The notes under the pieces are model-generated. The model saw nothing but the letters and a program-made list of their open reading frames with translations. It had not been told where the DNA came from and made no database searches. 64,000 nt of DNA from Bolinopsis microptera (lineage: Eukaryota; Ctenophora; Tentaculata; Lobata; Bolinopsidae), in assembly GCF_026151205.1 (NCBI RefSeq), contig NC_087083.1:4008460-4072459 (forward strand), in the 5' to 3' direction. The translations under genes were made by a program, and so were the position numbers. This document shows, one piece after another, positions 12,501 to 54,900 of the stretch (positions are counted from its first letter, which is position 1; the number at the start of each line of letters is the position of its first letter).

Positions 12501-15500
12501 ACTAACTTCTTTATAACAAATTGTCCCTTAGCAACCATGGTCTCCACTAACTCACTGTCACAAAGGAACATACTTCAGGTTGATACGACAATTAATCTAC
12601 CGGACATGTTACAGTTTATATTATCCACTGTTGGTTCTCCGTACCTACCACAAACCTCACAACTAATTAATTGGATAATTATATAGTTATTAATTATCCT
12701 AATTAGCTTTATACCTCTCGACTACGAAGAATTCCTGGTCCTCGCTCTCCTCGTCCATAGCTGACTGCATAGCTTCACTAACGCTGTTCAGAGTACTGGA
12801 CAAGTTTTAGGAATAAAATTTACAAAGGAGTAATATAAGTAATATGTATAGTAAGTAAAATAAGGAGTAAGTTAAAAATAAAGATTTAAAAAAAGAGCTT
12901 TTACAGAAAAATTTTGCCGTTTCCCCTCCCCTATCTCTATTTACTTTACTTATTATTATACCTAGGGGTCGTTCACATATTACGTAATATGTAAATGACC
13001 CCTAATTATTTAACGTCTTGATTAGATCTCACCTGTAAGGAGTTTTAACACTAATCGGCAAATCCTCGCTATCATCGTCAACAGCATTAGCGATATCATT
13101 TTCAGTGTTAAGTACAGCTGTAGGGCAGTCATCAGGAAACGTAAACGTCTGGGAAGAATTGTAAAATAAAATAGAATAAATTACCGGAAGAAGAAAGTTG
13201 AGATAAAACCACAGCTAAACACTAAAATGTCATGAAAACACTGCGGATAAGAAACTAAAATGTCGTGAAAACACTGCAGATAAGAAACTAAGATGTCGTG
13301 AAAACACTAAAGATAAGAAACTAAGATATTACTGGGTTGTCATAGTTACACACCTGCCTACTGTAAGCTGGAGTAACCAGCTCTGTTTTGTTAGAACTGA
13401 GCTCGTGATTAGAGGAGGACGTTCTCTTTATCTCCGTGTTAACAGCTGACTTCATCATAGAGGGGATATCATCTGAGCTGCTGTGTTCCCGGACACGCGT
13501 AGTACGGGGCAGTTCCTCCGAACTAGTGTTAGTCCACTCTCCGGGGTCATATAGGTCACCCTAGTGGGGGTACTAGTGTTAGTCCACTCTCCGGGGTCAT
13601 ATAGGTCACCCTAGTGGGGGGTACTGGTGTTAGTCCACTCTCCGGGGTCATATAGGTCACCCTAGTGGGGGTACTAGTGTTAGTCCACTCTCCGGGGTCA
13701 TATAGGTCACCCTAGTGGGGGGTACTAGTGTTAGTCCACTCTCCGGGGTCATATAGGTCACCCTAGTGGGGGTACTAGTGTTAGTCCACTCTCCGGGGTC
13801 ATATAGGTCACCCTAGTGGGGGGTACTAGTGTTAGTCCACTCTCCGGGGTCATATAGGTCACCCTAGTGGGGGGTACTGGTGTTAGTCCACTCTCCGGGG
13901 TCATATAGGTCACCCTAGTGGGGGGTACTGGTGTTAGTCCACTCTCCGGGGTCATATAGGTCACCCTAGTGGGGGTACTAGTGTTAGTCCACTCTCCGGG
14001 GTCATATAGGTCACCCTGTAAAGGTAACTAGTGTTAGTCCACTCTCCGGGGTCATATAGACACAAAAACAAAATTTCAAACTAGTATCCTCAAGAAAATT
14101 AGCCTTCTGAACAGCGAAAAAGTTCACCATCACTTTCTTAAATGGTCACTGGGGGTAAATCGTAAAGCCAGCAACGCAGGCGTCTGGGGTGAGTCAGGCC
14201 GCTACCCATTAATCTATGAATGTATTAACCTCACTCTCAAATATAGCCAACGTTTGAAAATCTCAAAGATAACTCCCTTGTCTCCTTAGCTTTCAAAGAA
14301 CAGATGAACATGAAATTGGACTGGTACAGGGGTTTGGAGCCTGTCCTCGCGCTAGACCCATGTTTCTCTACCGATCATGTCACAGCCTACCGCACACTCA
14401 AAAACAATCACTCCAAGTTTCTTTTCGAAAGAAACCCGAGTATCGCAAAACCACCAAAAGAGGACTTTCTTATTCACAACGGTTTCAAGAAACGAATTCC
14501 TCCTCAATCAACACAACCCATCGGGAGTAAAATATTCACACCACACGTCATTACTAAAACTTTGAAATGTAACTTTAGAGAATATTGGGGGTCCTTTTTT
14601 TTTTTTTTTTTTAGAGAGGCTGGGCCAAGATAGCCCACGAGAGGATAGCATTGAGATGCTCTGCCTACCTCTGGGGTGTGGCAACCTTGGGGAAGGTTAC
14701 CGGTGAGATCAGAGTGATTGGTGGAGGATGGTGTAAGATGTTATATGAGTCAAAATGATACGCTTAAGTGCCAGCTGGGTTTGGAAAAGTAAAACGAGAC
14801 GAGACAGCATATGAGATAATACTTTAAGTCACCCCGGTCTGATCCAGCTCTTCCGGCACAATTAAGCGTTTGGTGCGGTTTGCGAAATTGACAATTGTGG
14901 TGATGTGTTGGTTGTCGAATATGTCATTGACAGAGAGGTAGTAGTCTTGGAAATATTGACCTCTAATTTGGGCAATAGCCGGACACTGTCCAAGGAAGTG
15001 TGAGACAGTTTCCTCTCCGTCCCCGCACATAGGACAAGCACTGGTGTTTGATTTGCAAATGGTGTGAAGGTGTTTATTTAGGCCGCAGTGACCCGTGATG
15101 AGGTGAACTGCAGTTCTGTAATCCTGTCTGTTGTTGCTGAGTGTAGTGTTGAGGTTTTTGATGATTTTGGCATGCTTGTGGCCGAGTGTCAGTTTGGTGT
15201 GTCTGGGACCGTCAGTTACCCAAGTTTCCTGATTCAGTCTGTTGACTTTGTTGTCGATTTGACGTTTGATGTAGGATTGTGGAATTGGACACTTCAAAGT
15301 GGATTCACTGATAGTGCCAAGCTTGGCCAGCTCATCTGCTTTTTCGTTCCCCCACAATCCGATGTGTGCTGCAATCCATCGTATATCTAGCGTGTTGTTG
15401 GATCCGAGTGAATTAAGAGAGTCGTAACAGTCTCTTGTAGTTCTACTCCGCGTTGAAAGTGCGGAGAGAGCTTGAATAGATGATAGACTGTCAGACCATA

Positions 15501-18500
15501 TGATGATGTGTGTGTTGGTATATGTAGATAGATATTTGCAAGCTTCAATGATAGCGGTGAGCTCTGTTTGGTAAACAGTGCAATAGTCAGGGAGCTTGAA
15601 TGATCTTTCTTCAAGGGTGGTGTTATTGTTGTCAGTTGTGATGATATAGCCAGCCCCGCATCCTGAGTCTGTGAGTGACCCGTCAGTGTAGCAGGTGATT
15701 GTTTCACTGGTAATGTTGTCTATGGTGTTTTGAAGTGAATTTCTATATTCAGTGTTATCGGCTCCAGGAGTTGTGACGGTGAAGTGCTGTCCCAGCATCA
15801 TGGTTGGTGTTGTTAGGTCTCTCGTTGCTCTAGGTGGAATAATGAGATCTGCCATGAATTGTTTGTTGATAATGGTATGATTTTTGATAGTTCCCTTCCT
15901 GAAGGCGATAGTTTCAAGAGTGAGGCTGCCATAAGCTTGTAGCCTGGCCGCACCCTTTGCTGCTTCGCCTTGCAGGAACAGTATGATGTCAGAAGTGTCG
16001 GTGAGGTGATTCAATGCGATAAAAGGTGTGCTTGGCATGGCACCAGACATCATTCTGAGTGCCAATGCCTGAACACGTTTGAGTTTCTTCGCGTTATAGT
16101 CCGTTTGAGTGGCCCTGATCCATATACTACAGCAGTAGGATAGGATTGGACGGATGACAGCCGTGTACATCCATTTGCATGTTTTGGGGCTCATACCCCA
16201 TGTGGGGCCGACAGCTCTTCGACATTGCATGAGGGATGCCGTGGCTTTTTTGGTGGTGTTGATGATATGTTCATTGAAGTTGAGTTTGCTGTCCAAGGTC
16301 ACTCCTAGAAATTTAGCAGACTTGGAAAGACCTATAATGTTGTTGCCAACTGTTATAGGTCTTAGAGTCCACTTACTATTCCAGGTAAACATGACTATCT
16401 GAGTTTTAAGGGCGCTAATAGATAGCTCTTTGGTTCTGCACCAATTTTCTATCGTTTTAATAGTTTTGCATGTTCGGTCCCAGATGATGTCTAAATCATC
16501 CCCTTCCGCTAGAGACAACAGATCATCCGCAAAGGCTTGCAGGTAACCCGGGTTGTCTTTTGCGGTAAAGGAAAGGAGATCGTCGACTACCAGGTTCCAG
16601 AGAAAAGGAGAGAGAATGCCTCCTTGGGGGCAACCTCGCCTGATCCGTACCCTTCTCGACTTATCCTTATGATTTAGTGTGATGAATCGATTGGTTACCA
16701 TGTTGATGATCCACTGTGCTGTAGCCAAGTCCACTTTCGTAGCCTTGACTGCTTCAGAGATAGCCTTGAACGAGACATTGTCGAAGGCGCCCTCTATATC
16801 TAGAAAGACACCTAGGACATATCCTTTCTTGGCTATTCTGCGCTCAATGGTGTGAGTAACTTTATGAAGTGCCGCTTCTGTGGAGCAGCCCTTTTTAAAA
16901 CCGAATTGTCGTTTGTTGATATCATTAGCTATGTTGAGGTCATGTTGCATATGCCATAAGATCACTTTCTCCTGCAACTTTAACATCACAGGCGAAAGAG
17001 TGATCGTTCGAAATGACTTAGCTTTGTTGTAGTCGGTTTTTCCAGGCTTAGGGAGACAGATTCCAAGAGAGTCCCTCCACAAAGTTGGGATGTGTTGCGT
17101 TTCATGGTTTTTTGTCATAATGTTTTTTGTTATGTCTTTGATATGAGCCCAGGCTTTCTGGAATATGATAGGTTTTAGAGTGTCAGGTCCTGCAGCCTTC
17201 AAGGGATCGAAGGATAGGAGAGCCTTTTCGATTCTTTCAGGGCTGTAGATTTTGTCTAGTAAGTCTGTGGAGATGGGTAAGGGGCAGAGAGGCGGAACTG
17301 GCGGATCAGTAACACTCTCCTTGAAGTGGGTTTGTGTCATGACCTCCAGTGTCTCCTCTGCGTTTTTGGTGAGTTCTCCATTTGGTTTATAAACGGCTTC
17401 AAGTTTGTTATTGGTGTCAGTACAGGTTTTCAGAATCTTGTTCATCCTTCCAGATTCCTTAACTGATTCTGTGTCTGCGCAGAATTTCCGCCACGCATTG
17501 CGCTGGGAGTTGGACAGGATCTTGTTGTATTGCTTGTTGCTTTCTCTAAGAGCGAGCCACGAAGCTTCAGTTTTGATTCGACGAGCTGTGATGAGTTTGT
17601 GTCTTATACCCCTCTGTGCTTCCTCAACTTCTCGAGTTAGCCAGGGTGGTTTTCTGACAGCGCTGGAGATGTAAGTAATGGGACATGCCTCCTCGAAGGC
17701 CGCTCGGAGAGCAGTATTAATGGTGTTAACTTTGTGATCAATGTCGTGTGGTGTGTTAACGCAGGTGTTGTGGAGATCATTGTTGTTGTAAAGAATCTCG
17801 TCAAATTTCGCCCAGTCAGTGTTCTTGACTAGGCGTATTTGTCTTGGTTCTTTTTTGGGACCAGAAGTAATGTCGAACATGATATATCTGTGATCGGAGT
17901 TTGAGTAAAGATCACTAACGTGCCAGTTACTGATCAGTTCAGCCCCCAGTTGGTTGGTAATAGTGAGGTCAATGATGGAATTATGACCTCGTGAGTTGAG
18001 GAATGTTGGAGTTGAACCTTTGTTGGAACAGGAGAGCCCTAGCGACGAGAGGAAATCAAGTAGTTCCTCTCCTCTTCTATTGCACAACCTGTTACCCCAA
18101 AGAGTGTGTTGGGAGTTGGTGTCAGAGCCTATTATGAGTGGTATTTTGTTGTCTATAGCGTATTTGGCTAGAGGTGTGGTTTCGTGGGATGGAGCTGGTC
18201 CATTAATATCCATGTACGAAGCTGCCAGAATTACTTCTGTCGAGCTAAGTTGAATCTTAATAGCAACTTGATCCGGGGTTGTGAATTGCGATAGTTCCCA
18301 ACTTTTTTCAGCTAGGTTTTTGTGTATTACTATGGCGGCACGGGGCCTAATGTCCCCAACTTTGTAATAATACTCGGTTAGTTCTTTGCTTATTGGTGGA
18401 ATTAGGTGTTTGTTATTAGTGTATGGTTCAGTCGCTAGTACAATAGGATTTTTCCTGCCATGAGTGTTCACCAGCAGGGTTTTCCAAGCGTTGTACTTGC

Positions 18501-21500
18501 GTTTAAGGTTGATTTGAGTAACAGAGTAATATTCATGATGAGTTTTACCTGTTTTTTTGGTATTGGGGACGTGGCGTGCAGCACCTGCAGTTACCCTCAC
18601 CGGTCGGGTACTAGGACCTTTTGGATTGGGCACTGTGTCGGGGGGCTGGTCGAAGTCGAATAGCAGCAGCCAGCGTCTCCGGGAGAAAACTGTGTTTCTC
18701 TAAGAATGTCTCACCCGAAGGTGAGACATCCACCCAGATCCGCTGCCTCTGTTTAAACTCCGTCGACGGGCCCCCACCTTCATGTAGCTGCACAGCCACT
18801 GCCTCCCAGATGTTGGTGATCTGTATCCTATTCCACGGTGGGGTAGGATTGAGAGATAATGAGTTATTGTGTATATGGGAGATTATGTGCGCGTTCCCAC
18901 GCAATGTTGTTGAAATAGGTCCTTTAATCACAATAATGTCTGATGTTAAGCGTAAATCAGAAAACCTCCGCTCTGCGAAAATCAATGTCTCATCCGTGTT
19001 AGGCAGTTGATACATCTCATTACCGCTATCAGTCATGATTGTTTTGTAAATCCGGAGTTGTAGTATAGGGTTAATAGTGGTGGATTCCTTGGTGGTTGCT
19101 GAACGAGCACAGCCCCGATTGAAACCAGCACCCTCGCAGCAAGGCTGTGAAGCCTGCGCAAGTGTGCCAATCCCACACGAGGCCGGCTCAGTCCCGCCTC
19201 CTCCACTGGTAATCCGGTGTTGTAGTGTAGGTGTAGTAGTGGTGGATTCCTTGGTGGTTGCTGAACGAGCACAGCCCCGATAGGAACCAGCACCATCGCA
19301 GCAAGGCTGTGAAGCCTGCGCAAGTGTGCCAATCCCACACGAGGCCGGCTCAGTCCCGCCTCCTCCACTGGTAATCCGGTGTTGTAGTGTAGGTGTAGTA
19401 GTGGTGGATTCCTTGGTGGTTGCTGAACGAGCACAGCCCCGATAGGAACCAGCACCATCGCAGCAAGGCTGTGAAGCCTGCGCAAGTGTGCCAATCCCAC
19501 ACGAGGCCAGCTCAGTCCTGCCTCCTCCACTGGTAATCCGGTGTTGTAGTCCAAGTGTATTAGTGAGAGTTTTAACACTTTCTGCGTATCGTAGAAAGAT
19601 GTTTGTTTTACTACCGCGACAGTAATGATATGCCGCTAATAAGGTAAAGGTAAAACGGGTGCTAATGATCGGTATTAAGGGCCCGACCTTGAAGTACACA
19701 CCCTGAACTTCTAAAACCCTATATGCTCAGGTGTGAGTGAAGGCTGTGAGAGCTCCAAAAGAAAAAGGGATCAAATGAGGTAAAGGAAGACGGTTGGCAC
19801 GTGCGACCTACGTTCAGTTTTGCTCAGCTGAACAGTACAGCTTAGTCTCGGCTGGTCTTGTGATGCCGATTAAGCCCCCTTACCACGGCAAGGTCATTTG
19901 CTTTGGATAAAGCACCATTACCAATCACTATAGGTGAGAGAAACAGGATAGGATTGGGTCCTGGGCAGTAACTCCAGAGCAAATGGGCAGAGTCATAAGT
20001 GGTGCTCTAGTGCTCAGGATTGACTCTGCCGCTGTACTTTAAATCAATAAGTACCTACACGTGTGACAGACGCCCCAGCCGACAAGCCCCCTGACGCGAT
20101 GCATGCGAGCCCAGAACAGAGTGCCTACACCCAGTGGCACGCCATGCTAAGACAACGCCGCCAGCTATCGACCCGGATGCTATCCCCACGAGCTACCTAG
20201 CGACTTTCGTCGCTTGGGTGCTCAATGTGGACTGCCTCCGTTACGACCACCAGCTTCGCCACTCAGCCCAGCGGTCCCCTGGCTTCAGCCATCCACCCCA
20301 GTCTCAGCACACACCACACTGGGAACCACCAACCAGCACATCCAGACCCACATGCCAGGCCTCATCGAAGCTACCTGGTCTTTTGCCCGGAACCAGACAA
20401 AATTGGGGGTCCTGTATCAACACTTCTCGGAAATTAGAATTCTATCGTGACCTAGAATCCAAATTTAACAAAGAGTATTACCTAGATAGTGTCATTAAAT
20501 ATGCAGACCGTGCTAATATCACAAGACTGCGGATCAGTGCACATCGACTCGAAATTGAACTTGGCCGATATAATCAAACTCCACGTGACGAGCGAATATG
20601 CTCCTGGTGCAATATAGTCTTAGGTTCTGGTATTATTGAGAATGAAGACCACTTCCTTAACCATTGTGATCTTAACGCTGCATCGAGGCGAAAAGTCCTA
20701 GACAAGATCCAGTCACTCATATCAAATCCAATCAAACCGTCTGCGACATCTTATTCTGTTCACAATGTCATCCCTGGAGCAAACGTCCTCAAATTCATCA
20801 GCAACAACAGTGAAATCATTGAACTTATCACGAACGAAAGTCAAGTCCACCTCACGAGAGTCGTTGCTAGGTTTGCCACTACGTGTTTTAACAACCGCAA
20901 GAAATTTGTTGACTCTCTGGCCAGTACATGAACAGTGAACACTGAAAATCACTGTACCCGCTTTTGTTTCTTTTCGCGCAACGACGAGTGCAAACTGCAA
21001 AGTGACCTGGCTCAAGCATTACAGCATTACCAAGGCGACTGAAAACAAAATATTTTATGTCAAATCTTTATTTTTCACTTTAGTTAAATTATATTAATAT
21101 AATAAATTCAAATCTTATGATATTGTTATTATCTTAACAGTTACTATTGTAGCTCAAGATTTTAAATTTGTATTCCTTGTATTGTATTCCTTGTATTCCT
21201 TGTATTCCTTATAGGTCACCCTAGTGGGGGGTACTAGTGTTAGTCCACTCTCCGGGGTCATATAGGTCACCCTAGTGGGGGGTACTGGTGTTAGTCCACT
21301 CTCCGGGGTCATATAGGTCACCCTAGTGGGGGTACTAGTGTTAGTCCACTCTCCGGGGTCATATAAATCACCCTAGTGGGGGTACTAGTGTTAGTCCACT
21401 CTCCGGGGTCATATAGGTCACCCTAGTGGGGGGTACTGGTGTTAGTCCACTCTCCGGGGTCATATAGGTCACCCTAGTGGGGGGTACTGGTGTTAGTCCA

Positions 21501-27948: not shown

Positions 27949-30900
27949 GTCATGTCCGTCTATGTCCGCCTATGTCCTGTCCTTTTTGGATTCTATGAGA
28001 CAACAGACGTGTTTTTTGGGACATTGGCGGACTCGGACGGACATTGGCGGACTCGGACGGACATTGGCGGACTCGGACGGACATTGGCGGACCCGGACGG
28101 ACATTGGCGGACTTGGATGGACATTAGCGGACAAACATTTTGAGGACTGAAGAGTACTGAAGAGTACTGAAGAGTACTGAGGAGGATGGCTGAGAAGGAT
28201 GGCTGAGGAGGATGGCTGAGGAGGATGACTGAGGAGGATGACTGAGGAGGATGACTGAGGAGGATGACTCATGACTGAGAGGGAGGAGAAGGATCAGGAA
28301 GACCCAGGAGGAGGAGGAGGAGGAGGACCCAGAGGGAGGACCTAGGAGGAGGAGGAGGAGAACTGAGGAGGATGACTCAGGAGGAGGAGGACTCAGGAGG
28401 AGGACTGAGGAGGACTGAGAAGGAGGAGGACTGAGGAGGATGGCTGAGGAGGATGGCTGAGGAGGATGACTGAGAGGGAGGAGGAGGAGGAAGAGGAGGA
28501 AGAGGACTGAGGAGGAGGAGGACCCAGGAGGAGGACCCAGGAAAAGGCCCCAGGAGGAGGAGGAGGACTGGGGAGGAGGAGAACTGTTGAGGACTGGTGA
28601 GGAGGACTGAGGACGAGGAGGAAGAGTAGGAGGAGGACTGAGGAGGGGAGGAGGAAGAGGACTGGGGAGGATCAGGAAGACCCAGGAGGACCCAGGAGGA
28701 GGAGGAGGAGGAGGACCCAGGAGGAGAAGGACTGAGGAGGACTGAGGAGGAGGACTGACGATGACTGAGAAGGAGGAGGACTGAGGAGTACTGAGGAGGA
28801 TGGCTGAGGAGGATGGCTGGGGAGGATGGCTGAGGAGGATGGCTGGGGAGGATGGCTGAGGAGGATGATTGAGGAGGATGACTGAGAGGGAGGAGGAGGA
28901 GGAAGATGAGGAAGAGGACTGAGGAGGAGGAGGACCCAGGAGGAGGACCCAGGAAAAGGCCCCAGGAGGAGGAGGAGGACTGGGGAGGAGGAGAACTGTT
29001 GAGGACTGGTGAGGAGGACTGAGGACGAGGAGGAAGAGTAGGAGGAGGACTGAGGAGGGGAGGAGGAAGAGGACTGGGGAGGATCAGGAAGACCCAGGAG
29101 GACCCAGGAGGAGGAGGAGGAGGAGGACCCAGGAGGAGGAGGACTGAGGAGGACTGAGGAGGAGGACTGACGATGACTGAGAAGGAGGAGGACTGAGGAG
29201 TACTGAGGAGGATGGCTGAGGAGGATGGCTGGGGAGGATGGCTGAGGAGGATGGCTGGGGAGGATGGCTGAGGAGGATGATTGAGGAGGATGACTGAGAG
29301 GGAGGAGGAGGAGGACTCAGGAGGAGCAGGGGCGTGCACAGGATTTTTGAAAGGGGTAGGCGAGCCTACCGCCGCGAGGGAAGCGAGTGGCGGCAGGTGC
29401 CCGGGGGCGCAGCCCCCGGAAAATTTTTGACTGAATTATAGAATTATATGCTAAGCCAATAGGATTAAGGATATCATTAGAGAAGGTTCAGACAGTTGAT
29501 ACACACTTGGTCATTAGAAATTTTTGAACTTTATCAGCCTAGATGCCAAGTGGATATCATCAGTCATCTAACATTGTACATGAAGATACTAGATCAAAGT
29601 AGATACTTTAGCTCCTCTTTCCCATATTAATCTGCCTCTCTCTAATCTCTTGACTCTTTTGAGCTTGAACTGTTTCTTAATGTGTTGCCATTTCTGACTG
29701 TATACTGGACTAAGTAACGTAATGATCATTAATCACGAATGATTATAGATGTATGTAAGTATTAACTATTAAGAACTGATGAATATCAGGGAAATTATAA
29801 TTTCGTACTTGTTGACCCAACCATGAATGAGTGGCTACCTAGAATTAGGGCAGCCATCCCATGGAAAATGTATGCACAAGGCATGTGTAACGGCCTTATT
29901 CAATTAGTTCGAAATTAGTACATATGTTTAAAAAGTAATACTTGTAATTGTGTTTGATGTTATGTCGTTTAATTTTTTTTGTGAACATTTTTATAAAATT
30001 TTTTATAAAAATATTTTTTTGCTATAAAAAGCAATTTTCGACAAAAAATTATAGGTCAACATTTCAAAAAGGGGGCGGCGGCCGCCTCCATCGCCCCCCC
30101 CCCCTGGGCACGCCCCTGACTGGAGGAGGACTTAGGAGAAATGAGAAGGAGGACTGAGGAGAACTGAGGAGGAGGAGGAGGACTGAATAGGAGGAGGAGA
30201 AGGAGGGGGACTGGGAGAGGTCTGGGGAGGAGGAGGACTGATGAGAAGGATGAGGAGGAGGACTCAGGAGGAGGAGGACTGAGGACCGAGGAGGAAGATG
30301 AAGAGGAGGAGGAGGACCCAGGAGGAGGAGGACTGAGGAGAAGGACTGAGGAGGACTGAGGAGGACTGAGGAGGATGGCTGAGGAGGATGACTGAGAGGG
30401 AAGAGGAGGAGGAGGAGGAGGAGGAGGGGGACTGGGGGAGGACTTAGGAGGAGGATGGAGGAGGACTGAAGACTGAGGAGGAAGAGGAGGAGGATGAAGA
30501 GGAGGAACATTTTGAGGACTGAAGAGTACTGAAGAGTACTGAGGAGGATGGCTGAGAAGGATGGCTGAGGAGGATGGCTGAGGAGGATGACTGAGGAGGA
30601 TGACTGAGGAGGATGACTGAGAGGGAGGAGAAGGATCAGGAAGACCCAGGAGGAGGAGGAGGAGGAGGACCCAGAAGGAGGACCTAGGAGGAGGAGGAGG
30701 AGAACTGAGGAGGATGACTGAGGAGAAGGAGGACTCAGGAGGAGGACTGAGGAGGACTGAGAAGGAGGAGGACTGAGGAGGATGGCTGAGGAGGATGGCT
30801 GAGGAGGATGACTGAGAGGGAGGAGGAGGAAGAGGAGGAAGAGGACTGAGGAGGAGGAGGAGAAGGAGGACCCAGGAGGAGGAGGACCCAGGAGGAGGAC

Positions 30901-33900
30901 CCAGGAAAAGGCCCCAGGAGGAGGAGGACTGGGGAGGAGGAGAACTGTTGAGGACTGATGAGGAGGACTGAGGACGAGGAGGAAGAGTAGGAGGAGGACT
31001 GAGGAGGGGAGGAGGAAGAGGACTGGGGAGGATCAGGAAGACCCAGGAGGAGGAGGAGGAGGAGGACCCAGGAGGAGGAGGAGGACTGAGGAGGACTGAG
31101 GAGGAGGACTGACGATGACTGAGAAGGAGGAGGACTGAGGAGTACTGAGGAGGATGGCTGAGGAGGATGGCTGGGGAGGATGGCTGAGGAGGATGACTGA
31201 GGAGGATGACTGAGAGGGAGGAGGAGGAGGACTCAGGAGGAGGATTCAGAAGGAAGAGGAGGAGAACTCAGGAGGAGGACTCAGGAGGAGGACTCAGGAG
31301 GAGGACTTAGGAGAAATGAGAAGGAGGACTGAGGAGACCTGAGGAGGAGGAGGAGGAGGAGGAGGACTGAATAGGAGGAGGAGAAGGAGGGGGACTGGGA
31401 GAGGACTGGGGAGGAGGAGGACTGATGAGGAGGATGAGGAGGAGGACTCAGGAGGAGGAGGACTGAGGACCGAGGAGGAAGATGAAGAGGAGGAGGAGGA
31501 CCCAGGAGGAGGAGGACTGAGGAGGAGGACTGAGGAGGAGGACTGAGGAGGATGGCTGAGGAGGATGACTGAGAGGGAAGAGGAGGAGGAGGAGGAGGAG
31601 GAAGAGGAGGACTGAGGAGGACTGAGAAGGAGGAGGAGGAGGAGGAGGACTGAATAGGAGGAGGAGGGGGACTGGGGGAGGACTAAGGAGGAGGATGGAG
31701 GAGGAAGAGGAGGAGGATCAAGAGGAGGAGGAGGACCCAGGAGGAGGACCCAGGAGGAGGACTCAGGAGGAGGAGGAGGACTGGGGAGGAGGAGGACTGT
31801 TGAGGACTGTTGAGGAGGACTGAGGACGGGGAGGAGGAGTAGGAGGAGGACTGAGGAGGGGAGGAGAAAGAGGACTGAGGAAGATCAGGAAGACCCAGGG
31901 GGAGGAGGAGGAAGAGTAGGAGGAGGAAGCATCTAAATGTTATTTCCATTTTTGTCCGTTTTTGTCCATTTTTGTCCGTTTTTGTCCGCTCTATTTTTTG
32001 TCCGTTTTGAAAATATAGGGTACCGAACGGACAAAAAACATGATCCCCCTATAACAGCAAAAATTGAACATTTTATTTAGCAATTTAAGTGTCCATTAAT
32101 GTCCGCCTATGTCCGCCTATGTCCGTCTATGTCCGCCTATGTCCGCCTATGTCCGTCTATGTCCGCCTATGTCCGCATATGTCCGCCTATGTCCTGTCCT
32201 TTTTGGATTCTATGAGACAACCCGAGACAAGCGGACATAGACGGACGTGACACCCCCCCCCCCACAATAGATAAACTAAGCTAAGGTACTCGCAAATTTT
32301 AAGTTCGACTGATCTACCGCCTGTTTTACAACATACTAACACAAGTAATTTTCAATAATTTCACAAATGTAGTAGGGATCTATTAGTAGATGTTATTAGG
32401 GATCTATTAGTAGATATTAACTAACACTGAAAAGTAGGAAGTGTCCGGATCTCCTTCATGCTCCATAACAGTAAAGATGTGAGTGTTTATTATCTCCAGC
32501 AGCAGCTCACCAGTAGGGTTAACATGTAATGGGGACTGTTCGGGAGTAGGAGGGACTGTGCAGTTTAGTGACACTCTGCTCTGTGGGGAGGTGGTAATTA
32601 GTGGGGTAATAAGTGAGGTAATTAGTGAGGTGATTAGTGAGGTGATTAGTGAGGTGATTAGTGAGGTGATTAGTGAGGTAATTAGTGAGGTAATTAGTGA
32701 AGTAATTAGTGCGGAAATCAGCGAGGTAATTAGCGAGGTAATTATTGAGGTAATTATTGAGGTAATTAGTGAGGTAATTAGTGAGGTAATTAGTGAGGTA
32801 ATTAGCGAGGTATGAGGGGTAGTTAATTTTTTGCTGATAACAATAAAATGAAAACAAAATTAAATATATATATACAACAAAGTATTATAGTTTATTTTTA
32901 TGAATATTATCATTGCAAAACTAACAAGAATTGCGCCGGTCAGCGGACGCTAGATTTCCATCAACCGAAGGCATTGCCTTCTAAAATTTTAATTAACGAT
33001 AGTTTTATGTTGGTCAAAATATCAAATAATGCTTCTTCATTTACCATTCTTGGGGCGCTAAGAAAGAACAATTATATAGGTGATTTAATATTGTATGGGC
33101 GTGGTCTTAAATATTCGAATTTTGGCGACAGAATCCTCGAATGAGTGGTATATGGCCCAACGTATGTCACTTTTGGCCCACCTGTATTAATTAGCTTTCT
33201 ATTTGAAAAAGTTGAGTTGTAGGGGCAATGTAGGGGCTACAATGTAGGGACGAGGGGGAATAAGCTGGGTTATCTGTGGTTAGTTGCAGGAAACAACTAG
33301 TTCAGCCACGTGTAACTACCCTGTCTAACCTGTGGTTAGTTGCAGGAAACAACTAGTTCAGTCACGTGTAACTACCCTGTCTAACCTGCTGATAGTTGCA
33401 GGAAACAACTAGTTCAGCCACGTGTAACTACCCTGTCTAACCTGTGGTTAGTTGCAGGAAACAACTAGTTCAGCCACGTGTAACTACCCTGTCTAACCTG
33501 TGGTTAGTTGCAGGAAACAACTAGTTCAGCCACGTGTAACTACCCTGTCTAACCTGTGGTTAGTTGCAGGAAACAACTAGTTCAGCCACGTGTAACTACC
33601 CTGTCTAACCTGCTGTTAGTTGCAGGAAACAACTAGTTCAGCCACGTGTAACTACCCTGTCTAACCTGTGGTTAGTTGCAGGAAACAACTAGTTCAGTCA
33701 CGTGTAACTACCCTGTCTAACCTGCTGATAGTTGCAGGAAACAACTAGTTCAGCCACGTGTAACTACCCTGTCTAACCTGTGGTTAGTTGCAGGAAACAA
33801 CTAGTTCAGCCACGTGTAACTACCCTGTCTAACCTGTGGTTAGTTGCAGGAAACAACTAGTTCAGCCACGTGTAACTACCCTGTCTAACCTGTGGTTAGT

Positions 33901-42900: not shown

Positions 42901-45900
42901 CTGTAAACTGGAGCATTATATTCTCCTCCGTTCTCCTCCTCGTCTGAGTCTGATTCTAAACACAAGGAAAGTTTTAAACACGGGAAATTTAATGAAAAAG
43001 GGACAACAGTGTTTAATAGTGTAATCCAGGAAACTTGGTTAACTGACGGTCCCAGACACACCAAACTGACACTCGGCCACAAGCACGCCAACTTCATCAA
43101 AAACCTCAACACTACACACAGCAACAACAGACAAGATTACAGAACTGCAGTTCACCTCATCACGGATCACTGCGGCTTAAACAAACACCTTCACACCATT
43201 TGCAAATCAAACACCAGTGCTTGTCCTATGTGCGGCGACGGAGAGGAAACTGTCTCACACTTCCTTGGATAATGTCCGGACTTTTGCCCAAATTAGAGGT
43301 CAATATTTCCAGGACTACTACCTCTCTGTCAATGACATATTCGACAACCAACACATCACCACGATTGTCAATTTCGCAAACCGCACCAAACGCTTAAATG
43401 CGCCGGAAGAGCTGGGTCAGACCGGGGTGACTTAAGGTATTATCTCATATGCTGTCTCGTCTCGTTTTAATTTTCCAAACCCAGCACCCAAATCCTCCAC
43501 CATTCACTCTGATTTCACCGGCAACCTTTCCCAGAGTTGCCACACCCCCGAGGTAGGCAGAGCATCTCAATGCTATCCTCTCGTGGGCTATCTTGGCCCA
43601 GTCTCTCTTTAAAAAAAATAGAAAAAAAAGAAGTGTAATCCTGTTTGGAAGCGAGGTAAGTAAATAATTAACATTTATAAATTTATTTATTATTATTTAT
43701 TTACCTAATATAAATATTAGTGAACATCTCAGGTTCTGAGATTCCCCCTTATATAGGGACTACGGGTGGAAGATGAATAATTCAAATTCCAACATCTTGT
43801 TCCCTTAATTGTGCTGATTCTGGGAAGCAATCTCTTTACGCTCTCATCATACTGTAGAATGAGATATTGTTCATTTATAATTGGGTATTTATAGGCCTGT
43901 CAAGGATTGTAGTCCAATTAAGAGCTGATCAATTGCAGCTACTTGCGCCATATAAGGGATAACTGAGGTCACGTGACAGTCGGTCCTATCACGTGACCGC
44001 TGATCATATCACGTGATCTTGATTCGTAAATCCTCGGACACGCGATCCCATTCATACGACTACGTCACCAGAGCTCAAGCTACTTGATCAGACCTTACAT
44101 GGAATAGTATAGTGTATCGCGTGTAATTGGATCCGCGTGTAAACCCTATGTTTAAGACAAAACTAGTTATAATAAAACAAATATTTAATAAAACAAATAT
44201 TTATTTTTACGGCACAATCAAACAATATCAATAATAAATAAATCAGGGGAGGTTTGAAGAGGTTTCAAGTGCCGAAGTGTTGGCCTCTCGGACCAACAAG
44301 ACTCTTTAATTATAGGTGGTTCTTTGCTAAAGTTCCGTTCATTTGGCTGAATTTGTCGAATCCATTTCTCTTGAGAACTCAAAGTTTTAGTATACCTTCA
44401 AGTCAAATTTATTTTACGGATTGAAACAGTTAATTGAATTAACCCGTAAAACTCTTAGAAGGCACAGCTACAGTGACTTTGGTCATTAGTCCAGTGAAAC
44501 TTTCAAAATATAAAACACCGATAACGGGTCTACTCAAATGATCCAGGGTGTTGGTCATTAGTCCGGAAAAACTTTCAAAATATACGGACCTTCAAATGAT
44601 ATAGGGTACATAGTTCCGTGTTGATTAGTTTCAATTGAGCATTAACGAGGCCACGCATCGGCGATCTAGAAGCCGTGTTTCGATGCGTCCTAACGGTAAC
44701 AACACTGCCCGACTATATCTGAATTTTAGTTGCGATAGCAACAAGTTACAATTCGACGTAGCTCTCTAATAAGCTACAAGTTCAATTCAAATCGGAAATA
44801 TAAAAAGACTCTCAGTATATGAACCTTATCTCCGAAGGTATCTATTTAATGAATTAATGGAAGTATTATTATATTTGAAGGCTTGTTATACGACTCTATC
44901 AATTGTGTTCAAGTAACCATAAATTGAGACTGATTAAAAGCTCTAAAATAAAAAATATAAATAAACCACAACGGCAGTAGCCAAAACTGGTGCCCTCCTG
45001 GTTCGAATTGACGATCTCTTCATATCAAGCTTCAATTACTGAAACATCAAACTTCAATCATTGAAACATCAAGTTCAATAAAATGGCTGAACTGGACAAT
45101 GTCTACTAGAGGTCAAAAGGAAACAAGAAGAGAAAAAGAAGAAACTTGTAAAGAATCAGAGAAGCAAGAAGAAGACAGATCTAAAAGTCAAAAGGAAACA
45201 AGAAGAGAAAAAGAAGAAACTTGTAAAGAATCAGAGAAGCAAGAAGAAGACAGATCTAGAGCTCAAAAGGAAACAAGAAGCGAAAATGAAGAAACTTGTA
45301 AAAAATCAGAGAGGCAAGAGGAAAGGACCAATCTGGAACCTGAATATGAAAACATCACACCCACAGGTAGCGATGTGGACAGACGAAATTGGTTAATAAT
45401 TTTAAATGTGACTTCAAATGGCTGGAACACAGATCTAAGACTACGACATCTTGTTATTTCTCGGATGGAGTAGTAATAGCGAATCATGAGGATACATTTA
45501 CGTCCTCTTTGTCAAATATGGAGGGTTGCGACTATAGTTCAGGGTACTGTCTAACGCATAACGGAAAACACGTCACTTGGAACGTGATTGAAAATGTAAA
45601 AAGGGCTTATTTGCCTGTGGGGCAGTTCAATGCAACACAAATCGAAAATAAGCTACTCGTACCCGAGTTGAGCATGTCATTTAATCTGCCGGAGAAAAAT
45701 CCGGGTAACACTTGGATCGATAGGGATTTCCAAATAAAGGGAAGCCCAGCCCCGTATCAATTTAATCTTGAAAATGTAAATTCGAATAATGAAAATGCGA
45801 TCGAAGCAATAAGAGAGGAACTCGTCAATAAATTTAATTATCTTTTGGAATTAATTAAAAGTCCGTTGGCGCAAACGGAGTATTTGTGTAACGTGTACAA

Positions 45901-48900
45901 CGACATATATGGGACTGAGAGAATCCTAGCGAAAATCGATCCAACTGATTACGTACAATGGAAGTTAAATAGGACGGATGTAAAGGCTAAATTGGTCGGA
46001 AAATTGTTAATGATTTATCCTTGTCTGCAAATTCAACATTATCGATTCATAAACGACACCAACAGGTGTTATAACGGGTTTAAAATAGAATATAATCTGC
46101 CGGAAAATGATGAATATATTGAGGGCTATGTAGATCCTAAGTATAACATGATAATGCCTACCGCAATAGAGATAGATTGTCACAACTCTACGAACCAATA
46201 TATGATGGTGAATAATACGATTCTCGCTCAAAGTTCTCATGGGTTACACGAAATGAGGGTAAACCTTTCAAAGGTAGAAAGTATAGACAGAGTGAAACTT
46301 ACTGGAATACCCATGTCTCAAGATTTTCAAAATTGGATATATAATACGTCTGAATTGAAGCACCATGATATTAGCGATTTAATCCTGAAGGAAATGGAAA
46401 ATGAAATTAACCATTTGACGATTGATAAAACGGAAAAACGAAATGTAAAATCCAATTGGCGGGAATTATTTGGAATATTCGGACAAAGTAAGTTTACGAT
46501 TATATTTGCTATTATTAGCAACGTACAAAGCATCGCCGTATGGTATCTAATCTGGAGGTACATTATAGTAGAATTAATTATAAGTAAATGCGTCGATCGC
46601 ACCAGAGGACGGATCCCAGTTAATGAGGGCCCAATTGACCGGGATGGTCAGGATGATACGGAAGTTTAATTCCTAGATTGACACTGTCCTTTATATGTAC
46701 TGTAGTAAATGTGTATATTTAGATATTCTCCTTAGATATTCCATCAACATAAAGAATTAATTAGCTGGAATTTTAATTATGTTAGTAAATAAGGATAAGT
46801 AGTAACAAGGCTACTATGTATGATGAACATTATTTGAAGGAACTACTATAAATAAAGTATATATATATATGAAGTATGAGTACTAGGACAGTATAACTAT
46901 ATTATGATTGACAATGAAACAATGATAATGAATAACAAGTGCACAATATGATATGTAATAAGAAATAAATATGCGCAATATGAAAGTATTTGTATGCAAT
47001 GATATTAAAGTAAATGCACTATGTATGACAAAGATTATGTTATGAAAGATAATAAAGCGCAATCATATAAAATGAAAGTGCACAAGATAGCTAGATTATG
47101 AATGAAGTGTATGCGCAAAGATATGATCAAGATGAGTAACAAGTAATGCACAATATGGCATGATATTTAAATAAGTGATAAGCAAGCGCTATGAAAATAT
47201 AAGATTAAAATAATGTGAGATATGAAACGCCATGAAACAAACCATATTTTAAATGCAGGCCGGCCAAATGGAATGGGAACTAGATTAAATGACGTCACCC
47301 GGAAAATTTTATTTATTTATTTATTTATTTAGTTCTTAATTTATTTATTTATTTGCGTGCACGATTTGTGCCAAATCTGAGCTTAAATGTGCCAAAAGAC
47401 TCTTTAGATCCAAGGCAAATTGAACGTGATTGTTGTCTGGAACCAAAATAATTACTTTAGCATGACCTGTTTTGTATACTTTTCTAATAAAACACAAAAA
47501 CCAAATTAGGCACGTAGTAATTTAGAATCTTGTATCTTTGTAACTAAAGTTACAGTTATAAAAATATATTATAATATGACCGGTTAATGGTGGTTAATCT
47601 AAATACTTAAATAGCAAGGATGCGGAAGAAAGGATATTATCAACAAGTTATCTTCTTTATCAGTTGCTGCATAGCACTTTCAAAAGGAATGATTGAAGAA
47701 ATCAATTACCACCAGGAAAAGACTGGTCTCATCTTACAAGGAATCGGAATCGTCGCACCGGAGATTACCCCTGTGCTGATATCAACATTTATAAAGATAA
47801 GAAATCCAATGAAAAATGTAAATGAATGCGAAAACATATGCAACATTGACGAAAATGTAATTTGGGGACTGCTAACCCACGTAAAATGTAATCATGTGCA
47901 CAACAAAATCGGAGATCGCCAAAATGTAATAAAGGAAATCGAGAATTCGGTGGATAAAGACCTCGAAAATGATTCTAGACAAATGGCGGAACGATGTTTC
48001 AGAGAATGTATCAAAATACCGAAATGTAAAGCTTTCGGTGTGGAATATAGATCTGACGTCGTGATCTGCATTCTGAGAGAAACCATCCCTACGTATCATC
48101 AGGATTCTAAAGGTTCAAGCGAATTCGACATGCGATGCATGGTCGAAGATAAGAATAAATTCTGTGGACAATATCAGTCCAGAATCAATATTCTGTTTGA
48201 AAAATCAAATGAAAATTTTGTCAATGAAACAATGACAAAAATAGAAAAACTTACTGAATTGACGAAAAACAGGAAACAGAAAAGATTTGTTCAAGCAGCC
48301 CTTGGATTTTTTGCCGGTTCTATTCTTACTGGAGTGTTCAGTCTCTATGAACAATCGAAAATTTCAACTCAACTTAACGAGTTCTACGACCAATTTCAGG
48401 ATTTCCGTAATGAAATGACGGACTATATTGAATCAGCAACGGAATTTCATGAAGGTATGTTGAAAATGTACAAAACTTTGGAATTAAATTCCCAGGAGTC
48501 ATTGGAAGAATTAAGCTGTGAAATGATGAGTATAATTCGGTATAACCTGAAAAGAAATCAGCTTCAAGACTGGAAAGAGTATATATACACTCTCTCGAAA
48601 GATTTGATAGACGGCCAATTAAAAGGTCCCGTGAGTCCCACAATATTTAATGAAACGAATATACTGGATTTGCTGAAACATAAAAGAATGGAGGACGCAA
48701 TTTATGTTGACAACGTCCCTTTATTCTATCGTCTAGGCAGAATGTGGCTAGCTGATGTAAAGAAAGATGGAAAATTTTTCAATCTTCATGTGATTATATC
48801 GATACCTCAAATAAAAAGTGATGAAATGTACATCCTATATCAAGTGAACCAAGTAGGTTTGGTCAATGGTACTCAGTGCATGCGTCTGGATATACCGAAT

Positions 48901-51900
48901 CACGTGTATCAAAAAGATGGCGAATTTTACGAATTGGAAAACGAAAATAATTGCGAGGTCCGAAGTGGGATAAAATTATGTCTGGGGAATAAAGAAAACG
49001 AAGAATCTGCAAAGAAAGCAAGGTGTTTAAACGCCGACCCAAGAATATGTAAAACGAATTTGGAAAAATGTCAAATGCGCAATATTCAGACTAGTTCTGG
49101 TGTCATGGTCAGAGCAATACATCATTTGAAAGCATCGACGCAAGAAAGTCCTACTGAATACGTGGATATTTCAAATGGAAGTACGGTGAAATTTCTCAAC
49201 TACGATAAATATTATCAAATAGTTGCCGACAACTACATCATTAGATCAATTAAAGAGCCAATGTTTACGAAAGAACTAGAGTTGACGAACCCCGAAAAAT
49301 GGGACGAATATTTGATATCTGAAAATGAATTGCTGAAAAGAACGAATCTAAGTCAGCTCAGTGCTCATGTAGTTCAACAAAAAGAAATTGTTAAACATAT
49401 CAAATCTGAAAGAATCGGACTAAATCTGACGAAGGATCTAACTCTTGTGAATTTTATAGGAATTTTAACAGTAATGATTAGCATTATAGTGGGAATCTTC
49501 CTTCTATACAGCTATTGGAAAAAACGGTTCAGGACAAGGAAAGTAGAAAAGGACATAGAATTAGAAGAACAAAATAAAGACGAACTTTTAGAAAGCGGAA
49601 AAGATGAAGAATCTGGAGTAGATGAAACTAATTTCAGTGGTGAATATAGCGAAGGACTGCGACAAAGAGCGCCTAGTACAACTAAGGTGTATTCAGTGGA
49701 CGATGTGAAAAACAGAGTCTTATGACTAGACGAAGTAGAAGAATCAAATTTAAACTTGAACTGGAACCTAAATTGCGAAAATATAAATTGTGGAAAGGTG
49801 TCAGAAAAAGAGGTAAAGAAAGCTGTAAATTTACATTACGAAAATGTAAATGATAGTGTTCAAGATGTCAGCGACTGGGAAAGTGAATCAAAGAATACAA
49901 TAGACTCAAATAGTGCTTCGGATATACACGAGGAACTGGAGGAATTGAACATCGAGCATGACGCTTCTAACGATGATAATTTGGAACAACTACACAAAGA
50001 AGAGACGAAACGAGAAACAGAAATACCAATAGAAATATGGGTGATGATATTTAATTACCTCACCATCAAGCAATTACTGAAAGTACGAGAATTAAATAAA
50101 CGATTCAGTAGTTTGGTGAAGGATTACTTGCGGAACCCTACCAATGTAATAATGGAAAATTTTAAATTTTATAGTTACGAAACGTTCTATTTAACGGAAA
50201 TACTTATAGAAGATCAAATGTGTTGGACGAATATGAAAACTAAAATTGGAAAGTTTGCCATGAAATACATGATCATGAAAGGGGTGTACTGCAGCGCCAT
50301 CAATAAAGTGGAAAAACCATACTTGAGGTTTTTAAGAACACGGTGTCTACCATTGTATACTTTCAAGGACCGGCTAAGAAGCTTCACCCCTAAAGCGTCT
50401 GACGACGAAGTGATCATAAGATGGAAGGAATATAAGAAGAATTCTTGGGCGGATATTTCCCCATTGGAAAAATCATGCATTAAAATGGAATGCAAGTTCC
50501 AAACTTTCTTAACGAAACTATATATGAATAAATATGGTACGTCTCTACCGATAACTACGAATCGGGAAAAGATCCAAAGAATAGGCAAAATGCTGAAAAC
50601 CGAAGAGAATAAAAACTTCAATCTTCTTCAAGCTATAAAATATAGACCCCCGATTGAAGTTCTAATAGGGTAATCAAACCGTAAAAAGGAAAATGTAAAA
50701 TGTAAAATGTAATTCAAACGTAATATGTCAAACGTAATATCACAACTCACCAACGGGTTCAAAATTATAGAAACAGGCTCTTTCGTCATTTCCATTATCA
50801 CTTTAATTAAAGTTTTCTAACCACATATTGATCAGCAAAGCAAATGGAAAATACATCAGAAGAGATACCTTCAAAAACAGAAGAAATTCAAAGTCTATCC
50901 ATTAAAGAAGTCAAATCAGTTTCCAACTGTAATCTACCTATTGAACTATGGCATATTATTTTGACAAGGCTGAATCTACGTGATTTACTCAAAGCCAGGT
51001 TAATTTGCAAAAGGATGGGGAAAATCGTCTTTGACATTCTAATGGAGAACGAGATGTATTGGACCAGGATACAAACGAATATTGGAAAATTCGCGATAAA
51101 ACTCCTAACCATGAGAGGAGCGTATAATGCAGCAGTATTAGGACAAAAGAAATGTTATGCTCGTTTTGTCAGAACTAGATGTCTAACATTTGAAAAATAC
51201 AAGTCATTATTCCCAAATGAATCGGACTGGGTTATCCTAGAACGTTGGGGAAAGTATAAACACGAGTCATGGACGAAATTGTCAAGAATCGAAAAATCAA
51301 TTATTAAGATGGAATGCAAATTCGATTAGTATTTAAAGTACCAATACTGTAAAGCTTATGGAACCTGGTTGTCTATTACAATGACAGAAAAGAAAATAAA
51401 AGAAATCAGTAAAATGATGAAATACGAAGATAAGCAATACGGTAAATGAGTTCATCGCATAACTATGCGTGAATCTGCATTTAGATAAAGAATGATGAAA
51501 AATGTAAATATTGAAAAATTTGAAACTTAAAATATAAAACTGAAAACGGGCAGGTTTAAAGATGAGGAAGTTAGATAAGTAAAGGATCGAACTCAGCCCA
51601 ACTGAGATCCTAAATAATAAATATATGTATACAGTTTAAATTGTGAAAGTTATTATAAGACTTCAATAAGTTAAACATTTATTAAGTTAAGTAAGAAATT
51701 AATTAAATTAATAAGTAAGAATAAGTTAAAAGGCAAATAAGTTAAATATCCGATAAATTGAAAGTAGTTTGTCAAAGGACTATTAATTTAGTACCATTTC
51801 AGAGCCTTTTAAGTTTATTGAAGTCTACTGACCAAAATGGCCCATCCAGGGGTTATGATCAAGTTATTTCATAGGTTCTTAAATAGTTCTTGAATAGAAA

Positions 51901-54900
51901 ATTACAAGCTAGTAGATCTTCTCGTTTAGCCGGTCTATTGAGATTCTGGATCGCAACCGTATCCCCTCTCTGCACAGGAACATTTCCTACGAAGACCGTA
52001 GACGCATCGTTATCGGGACGTAACCCGAATCTGTTTCGTATCGGGACGTAACCCCCGTTGAGAAGAAGAAGAAAGAAGAAAGAAGAGGGAATGGAAAGAA
52101 TTATAATTGTAGCAATTCGTTACCGGGACGTAACCCGACTTTAAAAGCATCGCAATCAGGGCGTAACCTGACCCCCGTTGTCGTCGAAGAAAGAAGACCA
52201 AAGAAAAGGAAAGGAAAGGAAGGAAAAGAAAAGAAAAGAAAGATACTACTTGTAATAGTGGTGAGCGGCCCTAATGGCGAATTAGGTATTAATATATGTT
52301 AACAGTTTTAAGAAATGTTGATCAGCCCTAATGGCTAAATTATAGTAAATATTCTCCTATTTGAAGGAGAGGAAAACTTTGGTGTTAGATGATGATTATA
52401 ATTAGGAGACCTAGGTTCTAAAATTCAGAGTCTTAAAATTTAAGGATGTCAAGGAAAATTTAATAGAAGAAAAGAAGAAGACGAAAAAGAAAAAGAAATA
52501 TTTCATTAGAATAGTACGAGTAAGCCCTCGGTTGGCGAATCGGCTAATCGGTGAAATGATCAAATTAAAAACTCTATGAAAAAGGGGATCGTGTTGGCCT
52601 CTCGGACCAACAAGACTCTTTAATTATAGGTGGTTCTTTGCTAAAGTTCCGTTCATTTGGCTGAATTTGTCGAATCCATTTCTCTTGAGAACTCAAAGTT
52701 TTAGTATACCTTCAAGTCAAATTTATTTTACGGATTGAAACAGTTAATTGAATTAACCCGTAAAACTCTTAGAAGGCACAGCTACAGTGACTTTGGTCAT
52801 TAGTCCAGTGAAACTTTCAAAATATAAAACACCGATAACGGGTCTACTCAAATGATCCAGGGTGTTGGTCATTAGTCCGGAAAAACTTTCAAAATATACG
52901 GACCTTCAAATGATATAGGGTACATAGTTCCGTGTTGATTAGTTTCAATTGAGCATTAACGAGGCCACGCATCGGCGATCTAGAAGCCGTGTTTCGATGC
53001 GTCCTAACGGTAACAACACTGCCCGACTATATCTGAATTTTAGTTGCGATAGCAACAAGTTACAATTCGACGTAGCTCTCTAATAAGCTACAAGTTCAAT
53101 TCAAATCGGAAATATAAAAAGACTCTCAGTATATGAACCTTATCTCCGAAGGTATCTATTTAATGAATTAATGGAAGTATTATTATATTTGAAGGCTTAT
53201 TATACGACTCTATCAATTGTGTTCAAGTAACCATAAATTGAGACTGATTAAAAGCTCTAAAATAAAAAATATAAATAAACCACAACGGCAGTAGCCAAAA
53301 GAAGGCCACTGCTTATCTTTAGGATTTGAGAGTGACCTGTGCTTGAAACCCCCTCAACATCCACTACGTCAATATACTTATTATACAAATATAGAAAAAT
53401 ATAATAATCTAAAATTACTTATTGGTTTAGTTTGGTGACAAAGGAGAGCCCAGTTGAGTTTTAGTTTAGCTTTAGGTTTTGAATCACAGTTTAAAAGGTT
53501 AGCCATGTTTCATAGCAGAGAGAGATATCATGTGTGCATAGCCGTACCGGATGTAGAGTTTGAGATATAATATAGATTAGTTACCATGTAACTAATCATA
53601 CTCAAGGGCAAATTACTTTAAAATGCATTTTACTGTCATAGATGTTATTATATGCTAAGTAAAGCGCCCGAGCGGCTTATCGGATGGCACCGATTTTAGA
53701 TAAACTAACAGGAACCCGCCTAACCCTATAGTGGTGTCAACGAAAGAGCTGTATAGTATCAATTAACGATCAAAGCTAATCCTTATTACAATCACATACC
53801 AAACTACCTAATCAGATTGATTGCTTAGCAGTCCTAAAGTAATTGGAATACGAAATTAAACATTAGGTTTCTGATATTCGACCTAATCCTTATCAGTATA
53901 ATTACATTAGTGGATCCTTATTAATTAATTGAATTTGAGACTTATCGTAAGTAACTCTAAAACTAATTAATAATGAGACGTATCATAATTAATAATGAGA
54001 CGTATCATAATTAACTCTAAAACTAATTAGGGTGAGTATAAATACATGGAGAGTGGATGATGAAACATCAACCTCACTACCACTTTAGTTTTATATCGTT
54101 TGCTTCAGTTTGATATCTTCTTCAAAAATGTCTATATATTGATCTAAAAACATTTGACTATCAGCAGTTCGCCTGCGAGGAGTGTGATCAGATCGATGGA
54201 CATGCAGAAGTTCTTCAGTGAACAGGTGGTCACTACCACTTTAGCTTCATATCGTTTGTTTCAACTTCAACTCTACAAAATGCCAATCACCTACACAAGC
54301 TACGGCACACTTGCCAGGTTGGAGTTACTTACTATGTACAAGAGGATCACAGTTACAACAGCCGTATGTTTTGGGTTGGATACCATGAGATACAATGTTT
54401 GGGACCGGAAGATGAGACGTATCGCTAGAAAATATGAAGGACTTATCATAATTAAATCTAAAACTAATTAACGAGGGGGGAGTATAAATACATGAAGAGT
54501 GGATGATGAGACATCAACCTCACTTCTCCTTTACTCTTTTACAGTTTGTAACAATTCACTAATCAACAAAATGGTCGTCCTTTATACCAGTTATGGCACA
54601 CTCGCCAGACTAGAGTTGCTGACAATGTACATGCGTATAACGGTGACTACGGCTGTGTGCTTTGGTCTGGACACAATGAGGTATAACGTGTTTGACAGGA
54701 AAATGAGACGCGTCGCCAGGAAGCTAGAAGGACAACATGTAAGTATCATTGATCTTTATTATATGTATTATATGATTATTTGCTATTATTGACTTCCAAC
54801 CATTAAAAATTATCAAAGAGTTTGTTTGTTGATATTTTAATAATTACACCATCAAAACATCTCAGGTCAAAGTGACGTATACGACCGACAATGGAGCGTT

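What the first reader, a model, noticed from the sequence alone, without database searches (positions are those of the whole stretch)
44278..53300. Recently moved LTR element with Env and F-box genes but no gag-pol
The LTRs appear to differ at one base in 709, a 4-bp duplication is intact, and the 7.6-kb interior has two glycoprotein-like frames and two F-box frames without any reverse-transcriptase, integrase or Gag motif. Non-autonomous LTR elements usually lose coding, whereas here the surface and host-interaction genes remain open and the replication genes are gone. This could be a satellite-like passenger that borrows Gag-Pol from a helper and supplies a fusogen and ubiquitin-ligase adaptor.
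Basis: partly seen in the sequence, partly recalled or inferred. Interest (0 to 1): 0.9.

Follow-up and report, generated by a model that had tools for sequence, protein, structure and literature searches.

The report
Pol-deleted copy of two-fusogen Gypsy retrovirus
This is a young, internally deleted copy of a large virus-like jumping gene that carries two unrelated cell-fusion proteins and F-box proteins; gag-pol behind the same LTR exists elsewhere in the genome, and the gene set is the unusual part.

Summary
In detail: LTRs 44278-44986 and 52592-53300 differ at 1 of 709 bases, TSD GAAG is intact, no RT/IN lies between. It is not a lone env/F-box passenger. Ten two-LTR copies were found in the 264.7-Mb genome. 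All ten lack RT-RNaseH-IN and keep the F frame open, but each has its own deletion (10 of 10 breakpoint pairs differ). Contig C184 carries the same LTR, an open Gag and an open Ty3-type pro-RT-RH-IN frame up to the contig end. The inferred parent is a >=15.5-kb Ty3/Gypsy retrovirus, gag-pol-(ORF-X)-G-F-Fbox-Fbox. G resembles class III fusogens, F paramyxovirus-type class I F. A relative with 45% pol identity has gag-pol-G-F-Fbox in the same order, so this is no chance capture; another relative (49%) shows no G, F or F-box downstream. Here G lacks its N terminus and F-box2 is damaged. Best reading: a DI-like deletion made during reverse transcription; no deleted form of this family has multiplied. 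Elsewhere, 8 of 15 diverged G loci have gag directly upstream with no room for pol.

The parts
44274..44277 (.). target-site duplication GAAG, left copy
44278..44986 (+). 5' LTR, 709 bp, TGTTGG...CCAAAA
   Evidence: 30 LTR matches in the genome
44988..44998 (+). primer-binding-site-like TGGTGCCCTCC (tRNA not identified)
   Evidence: read by eye
45083..45100 (+). remnant of gag: first six codons, then a deletion junction
45101..45380 (+). remnant of the stretch between pol and G (ORF-X), with three 75-bp tandem repeats 45106-45330; second deletion junction at 45380/45381
45389..46669 (+). G: N-terminally truncated class III-like fusion glycoprotein (565-aa open frame in 2 of 10 copies)
47620..49725 (+). 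F: class I paramyxovirus-type fusion glycoprotein by its homologues, 701 aa; furin-like RKQKR and C-terminal hydrophobic stretch read by eye; open in 10 of 10 copies (one of them with a 24-base in-frame loss)
49756..50673 (+). F-box protein 1, 305 aa (open in 8 of 10 copies)
50844..51329 (+). F-box protein 2, 161 aa here: in-frame loss of 72 bp at 51028-51030 and a premature stop (about 230 aa, open, in the other 9 copies); 42% identical to F-box 1
52578..52587 (+). polypurine-tract-like gaaaaagggg before the 3' LTR
   Evidence: read by eye
52592..53300 (+). 3' LTR, 1 of 709 bases different from the 5' LTR
53301..53304 (.). target-site duplication GAAG, right copy

Best explanation
The window holds a recently inserted, internally deleted provirus of a large Ty3/Gypsy (Metaviridae-like) endogenous retrovirus with the inferred gene order LTR-gag-pro-RT-RNaseH-IN-(ORF-X)-G-F-Fbox1-Fbox2-LTR. 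Shown: the copies, their frames, the private deletions, and gag-pol behind the same LTR on C184. Inferred: parental genomic RNA was packaged with parental Gag-Pol; during minus-strand synthesis, which starts at the 3' end and copies F-box, F and G first, RT jumped from the ORF-X/G region to pol's start, gag or the leader, so the DNA that integrated had lost pol. Such a provirus could express F and F-box proteins but could not copy itself. Inferred function: G and F serve entry and egress of enveloped particles; F-box proteins act as SCF ubiquitin-ligase adaptors against a host factor.
For: Ten two-LTR copies; LTR pairs differ by 0-4 mismatches (and 0-3 gaps) per about 710 bp, exact 4-bp TSDs in 8 of 10. 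Ten of ten breakpoint pairs differ; copies lie 3-17 mismatches apart over 3621 columns. Junctions: BLAST overlaps of 0-7 bp, some imperfect, or 12-22 bp of filler; no GT-AG pair at 11 junctions read by eye (L009 and L016: 5' side only). C184: LTR, 508-aa Gag, 1399-aa open frame with RVT_1 1.4e-23, RNase H, Integrase_H2C2 and rve above cut-off, protease just below it; nearest solved relative Ty3 Gag-Pol, 1.5e-67. It is the only match above 50% to this RT-IN. L014/15, L021 and L023/24 keep gag and protease upstream of G or its remains, which ties gag-pol to the env block. The C3 relative has gag (38%), open pol (45%), G (37%), F (35%) and an F-box gene (29%) in that order. F: 6 nonsynonymous of 14 variable columns, P 0.003; open in 10 of 10.
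Against: No single copy shows RT-IN and env together: C184 ends in or just after pol, so the full order is inferred from overlapping deleted copies. The window and L021 share a 3' breakpoint (45381) with different 5' breakpoints, unexplained. Deletion after integration is not excluded. G (pN/pS 0.65), F-box1 (0.98) and F-box2 (0.81) show no significant constraint among copies, and F against the other three gives P 0.11. F-box genes were seen only in the window's family and the C3 relative, not in L038, L039-L041, L042 or L043.
Confidence: 0.72

Rival explanations
1. A satellite element that lives by keeping Env and F-box and borrowing Gag-Pol.
For: 10 of 10 two-LTR copies lack RT-IN and keep F open. 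If deletions of >=3 kb fell at random in a 15.5-kb parent, the chance that one spans RT-IN and spares F is about 0.19, or 5e-8 for ten; given loss of RT-IN, sparing F ten times is about 4e-4 (a crude uniform model on a minimum length). Other diverged lineages here hold pol-less gag-G-F, 8 of 15 outside G loci, some multi-copy.
Against: No two copies of this family share a deletion, so no deleted form has multiplied; G is whole in 2 of 10 copies and F-box2 is damaged here.
Confidence: 0.15
2. Copies were deleted after integration by host recombination or repair, and pol-bearing copies were purged.
For: Junction overlaps and fillers also fit end joining.
Against: All ten losses are internal and leave both LTRs, and LTR pairs are nearly identical, leaving little time.
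Confidence: 0.1
3. Retrocopies of spliced subgenomic env RNA.
For: Leader joined to env-side sequence is the layout expected of an env mRNA (inference).
Against: No GT-AG border at the junctions read, and ten different breakpoint pairs.
Confidence: 0.03

Closest known systems
Env-bearing Ty3/Gypsy elements (errantiviruses such as gypsy and ZAM; features recalled)
   Same: LTRs, Ty3-type Gag-Pol, 4-bp TSD, env downstream of pol
   Different: Two unrelated fusogens, F-box genes, parent >=15.5 kb; the window copy lacks pol
Anakin (BEL-Pao + chuvirus glycoprotein, mosquitoes; PMC7642597, passages seen)
   Same: A negative-strand-RNA-virus-type glycoprotein inside an LTR element, with many defective copies
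   Different: Ty3/Gypsy, not BEL-Pao, and a second, class I fusogen. PMC10084718 (abstract, results and discussion read) reports no clear evidence of such capture by Gypsy. A chuvirus origin of G was not tested here
TelKA clade of bdelloid rotifers (PMC5408684, passages seen)
   Same: Paramyxovirus-type F (PF00523) as env of an LTR element
   Different: No class III G in the passages seen; 'f-box' occurs 0 times in that text
Defective HIV-1 proviruses with large internal deletions (PMC10470503, PMC12154797; start of abstract in a search listing)
   Same: Internal deletions between LTRs, in most copies

Membership tests
LTR retrotransposon insertion | paired LTRs, TSD, PBS and PPT | tested here: met
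   PBS and PPT by eye, tRNA not identified
Ty3/Gypsy (Metaviridae) | pro-RT-RNaseH-IN order with Ty3-type domains | tested here: met
   on the C184 copy, not in the window: (protease 25.3 bits, cut-off 28.2 there; 28.7 bits in the L023 piece)
Ty3/Gypsy (Metaviridae) | RT phylogeny inside the family | not tested
   no tree was built
Autonomous endogenous retrovirus (the window copy) | own gag and pol | tested here: not met
Class III fusogen (G) | sequence match to gB / monjiviricete fusion proteins | tested here: met
   PF24664 30.7 bits (cut-off 27) on the window frame; profile of four G proteins to herpesvirus gB 9.4e-7. Against: the full-length L023 frame and P0007 did not list PF24664, C3 G is just under the cut-off (26.5 bits), and gB PF00606 stays below its cut-off
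Class III fusogen (G) | fold | tested here: inconclusive
   AlphaFold2 mean pLDDT 35
Class I paramyxovirus-type F | PF00523 match | tested here: met
   for homologues only: C3 F 39.2 bits, cut-off 29.8; P0005, 65% identical, has PF00523 precomputed; C3 F to RSV F E 0.002. Against: the window F has no such hit, nor P0001, P0002, P0004, and the profile A1 matched no solved chain at E <= 1
Class I paramyxovirus-type F | fold | tested here: inconclusive
   AlphaFold2 mean pLDDT 39
SCF substrate adaptor (F-box) | F-box domain | tested here: met
   PF00646 above cut-off in both frames; the C3 gene is below it (15.4 bits, cut-off 20.5)
SCF substrate adaptor (F-box) | Skp1 binding | not testable with these tools
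   needs a binding assay
Satellite dependent on a helper | a pol-less form that multiplies | tested here: not met
   10 of 10 deletions differ in the window's family; seen only in other lineages, without LTRs found

The most novel reading that the evidence does not exclude
A lineage of Ty3/Gypsy retroviruses enters cells with a two-fusogen machine (class III G plus class I F), in part disarms hosts with F-box adaptors, and repeatedly throws off pol-less gag-G-F elements that persist or spread as satellites or host-kept enveloped capsids.
Probability: 0.3. Interest if true: 0.85.

Novelty: new variant of a known kind. Interest (0 to 1): 0.6.

Why it matters
Env-bearing retroelements usually carry one fusogen (established knowledge, recalled). 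Here two unrelated fusogens sit side by side in diverged elements of one genome: 14 of 15 G loci outside the window's family have F just downstream, while 13 of 27 F rows have no G within 4 kb upstream, so F alone also occurs. If G and F are both needed where they co-occur, this is a new way for a retrovirus to build an entry machine. The ten private pol deletions give a natural set for asking why F and F-box are kept while pol is lost.

Tried and rejected
Chance capture of env/F-box in one copy: rejected. Spliced-RNA retrocopy: no GT-AG at the junctions read. C184 and C129 as two ends of one insertion: flanks ATCG and CTTC do not match. Structure models of G and F: too poor, so no fold search was run. 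F-box1 relatives in the large protein set: none at E <= 0.001 among 472 candidates. The F-box1 genome search did not complete and nor was a protease search, so their spread is unknown beyond fetched loci. No tRNA in the window. The host was not identified and no test of it was made. Paper searches aimed at F-box or two env genes in LTR elements (15 of 122, 10 of 17, 10 of 80 and 2 of 2 papers listed) showed no such case in titles and abstract starts; that is all they say. The 245-bp block with a double zinc ribbon in L016 (1011-1255) may be ORF-X or captured sequence; not resolved.
Full report
Observation. LTRs 44278-44986 and 52592-53300 differ at one base and GAAG flanks both ends. No Gag, RT or IN frame lies between them in the ORF lists. 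Two corrections: the first glycoprotein frame is cut at its N terminus by a deletion ending at 45381, and F-box2 has an in-frame loss of 72 bp plus a premature stop.

The family. The LTR finds 30 matches (counts of repeats are lower bounds). By my reading of their positions, 23 belong to ten two-LTR copies (window included; three have one LTR split by a later insertion). The other seven are the C184 LTR, an LTR at the start of contig C129, and five single or partial LTRs, two of them 90% identical. The nine other two-LTR copies were fetched in pieces. Over 45380-51030 their aligned blocks are 99.2-99.8% identical to the window; blocks that include the 3' part and LTR run lower, to 96.2%. LTR pairs differ by 0-4 mismatches. 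TSDs are exact in 8 of 10; L018 has one mismatch and L023/L024 none that matches.

Gag-pol exists. C184 carries the LTR, a 508-aa Gag (PNMA 25.5 bits, cut-off 25) and a 1399-aa open frame with protease, RT, RNase H and integrase, closest among solved structures to Ty3. The contig ends there, so whether G and F follow is not seen. A genome search with RT-IN found this pol once; the next matches are 45-49% identical (43 of 503 candidates scored).

Deletions. None of the ten copies matched the RT-RNaseH-IN part of C184. The 5' breakpoints lie from the leader to just before RT, the 3' breakpoints from the ORF-X region into G (rows of 85% identity or less dropped). All ten pairs differ. Overlaps of 0-7 bp by BLAST, short fillers and no GT-AG borders point to template switching or end joining, not splicing. 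Copies span 8.8-18.5 kb as they lie, later insertions included.

Frames and constraint. F is open in 10 of 10 copies (L019 lacks 24 bases), F-box1 in 8, F-box2 in 9, full-length G in 2. Pooled pairwise pN/pS: F 0.18, G 0.65, F-box1 0.98, F-box2 0.81. Only F departs from neutrality (6 of 14 columns nonsynonymous, P 0.003; the others P 0.14-0.60), and F against the rest gives P 0.11. Counts are small.

What the proteins are. F: the window protein has no Pfam hit above cut-off, but C3 F matches PF00523 (39.2 bits) and RSV F at E 0.002, and P0005 (65% identical) has PF00523 precomputed. Against this, P0001, P0002 and P0004 list no PF00523 and a profile of six F proteins matched no solved chain. 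Five F relatives at 46-65% identity lie in unnamed ENA records. G: monjiviricete- and gB-type by Pfam and by profile, with relatives at 99, 60 and 48%; not every G listed the family. A chuvirus origin was not tested. The two F-box proteins are 42% identical. Structure models failed.

The module in diverged elements. The C3 relative holds gag, open pol, G, F and an F-box gene in the same order. Its F-box is below Pfam's cut-off but matches F-box1 at 29%, E 6.8e-11 in a search of three loci. The C5 relative (49% pol) showed no G, F or F-box in the 9.7 kb downstream (L038). Outside the window's family 15 G loci were compared: 14 have F 0.43-2.25 kb downstream, 7 have pol upstream (one of these pols decayed), and 8 have gag 0.38-1.43 kb upstream, with no room for pol (of 30 G rows, 12 of the window's family and 3 second pieces were left out). 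Thirteen of 27 F rows had no G within 4 kb upstream.

Pol-less relatives. Three of those eight (L039-L041) are 97-98.6% identical over about 7.8 kb, with open Gag, G and F except that G of L041 is frameshifted. No terminal repeats were found. pN/pS: G 0.10-0.44 (P 0.06 to 5e-6), F 0.25-0.41 (P 0.002-0.008), gag 0.9-2.5. Two more (L042, L043) keep an open 276-aa Gag with decayed G and F. No F-box match was found in these five loci.

Reading. The window is best seen as a dead-end, DI-like provirus. That RT-IN is lost and F kept in all ten is more than a uniform model gives, so some bias is at work: direction of minus-strand synthesis, genome size, cis signals in the 3' half, purging of pol-bearing copies, or an assembly that breaks in full-length copies (C184 ends in or just after pol; C129 starts in an LTR). 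These were not separated.

Literature. PMC10084718 (abstract, results, discussion read) finds Jingchuvirales-type G near Gypsy fragments but no clear capture by Gypsy. Passages of PMC7642597, PMC5408684 and PMC6431247 and the abstract of PMC12440569 were seen. The listings showed no LTR element with F-box genes or two such fusogens.

Noticed in passing
L039, L040, L041 (C11:8033000, C5:10097000, C6:20634500): A diverged pol-less gag-G-F unit in three copies, 97-98.6% identical, without LTRs or TIRs by the tests used, 3' end AATAAAGGTAAAA in two of them; it may have moved by LINE-type copying or be host-kept.
   Followed up: partly
L042, L043 (C9:16412500, C2:12877500): Another pol-less gag-G-F group, 92-93% alike over most of its aligned length, with an open 276-aa Gag but decayed G and F.
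   Followed up: partly
L016:1000-1839; L035:2704-2979: Zinc-ribbon ORFs upstream of G (DZR E 2.3e-7 in L016; weak RanBP-type, below cut-off, in the C3 relative), a possible accessory gene between pol and G.
   Followed up: partly
window 45380/45381 and L021: Two copies with different 5' breakpoints share the same 3' deletion breakpoint.
   Followed up: no
window 14824-18699 (-): A long open frame of 1291 aa that looks like a non-LTR (LINE-type) reverse transcriptase, judged by eye.
   Followed up: no
window 28001-32000: Strong GC skew and overlapping repetitive, low-complexity frames.
   Followed up: no
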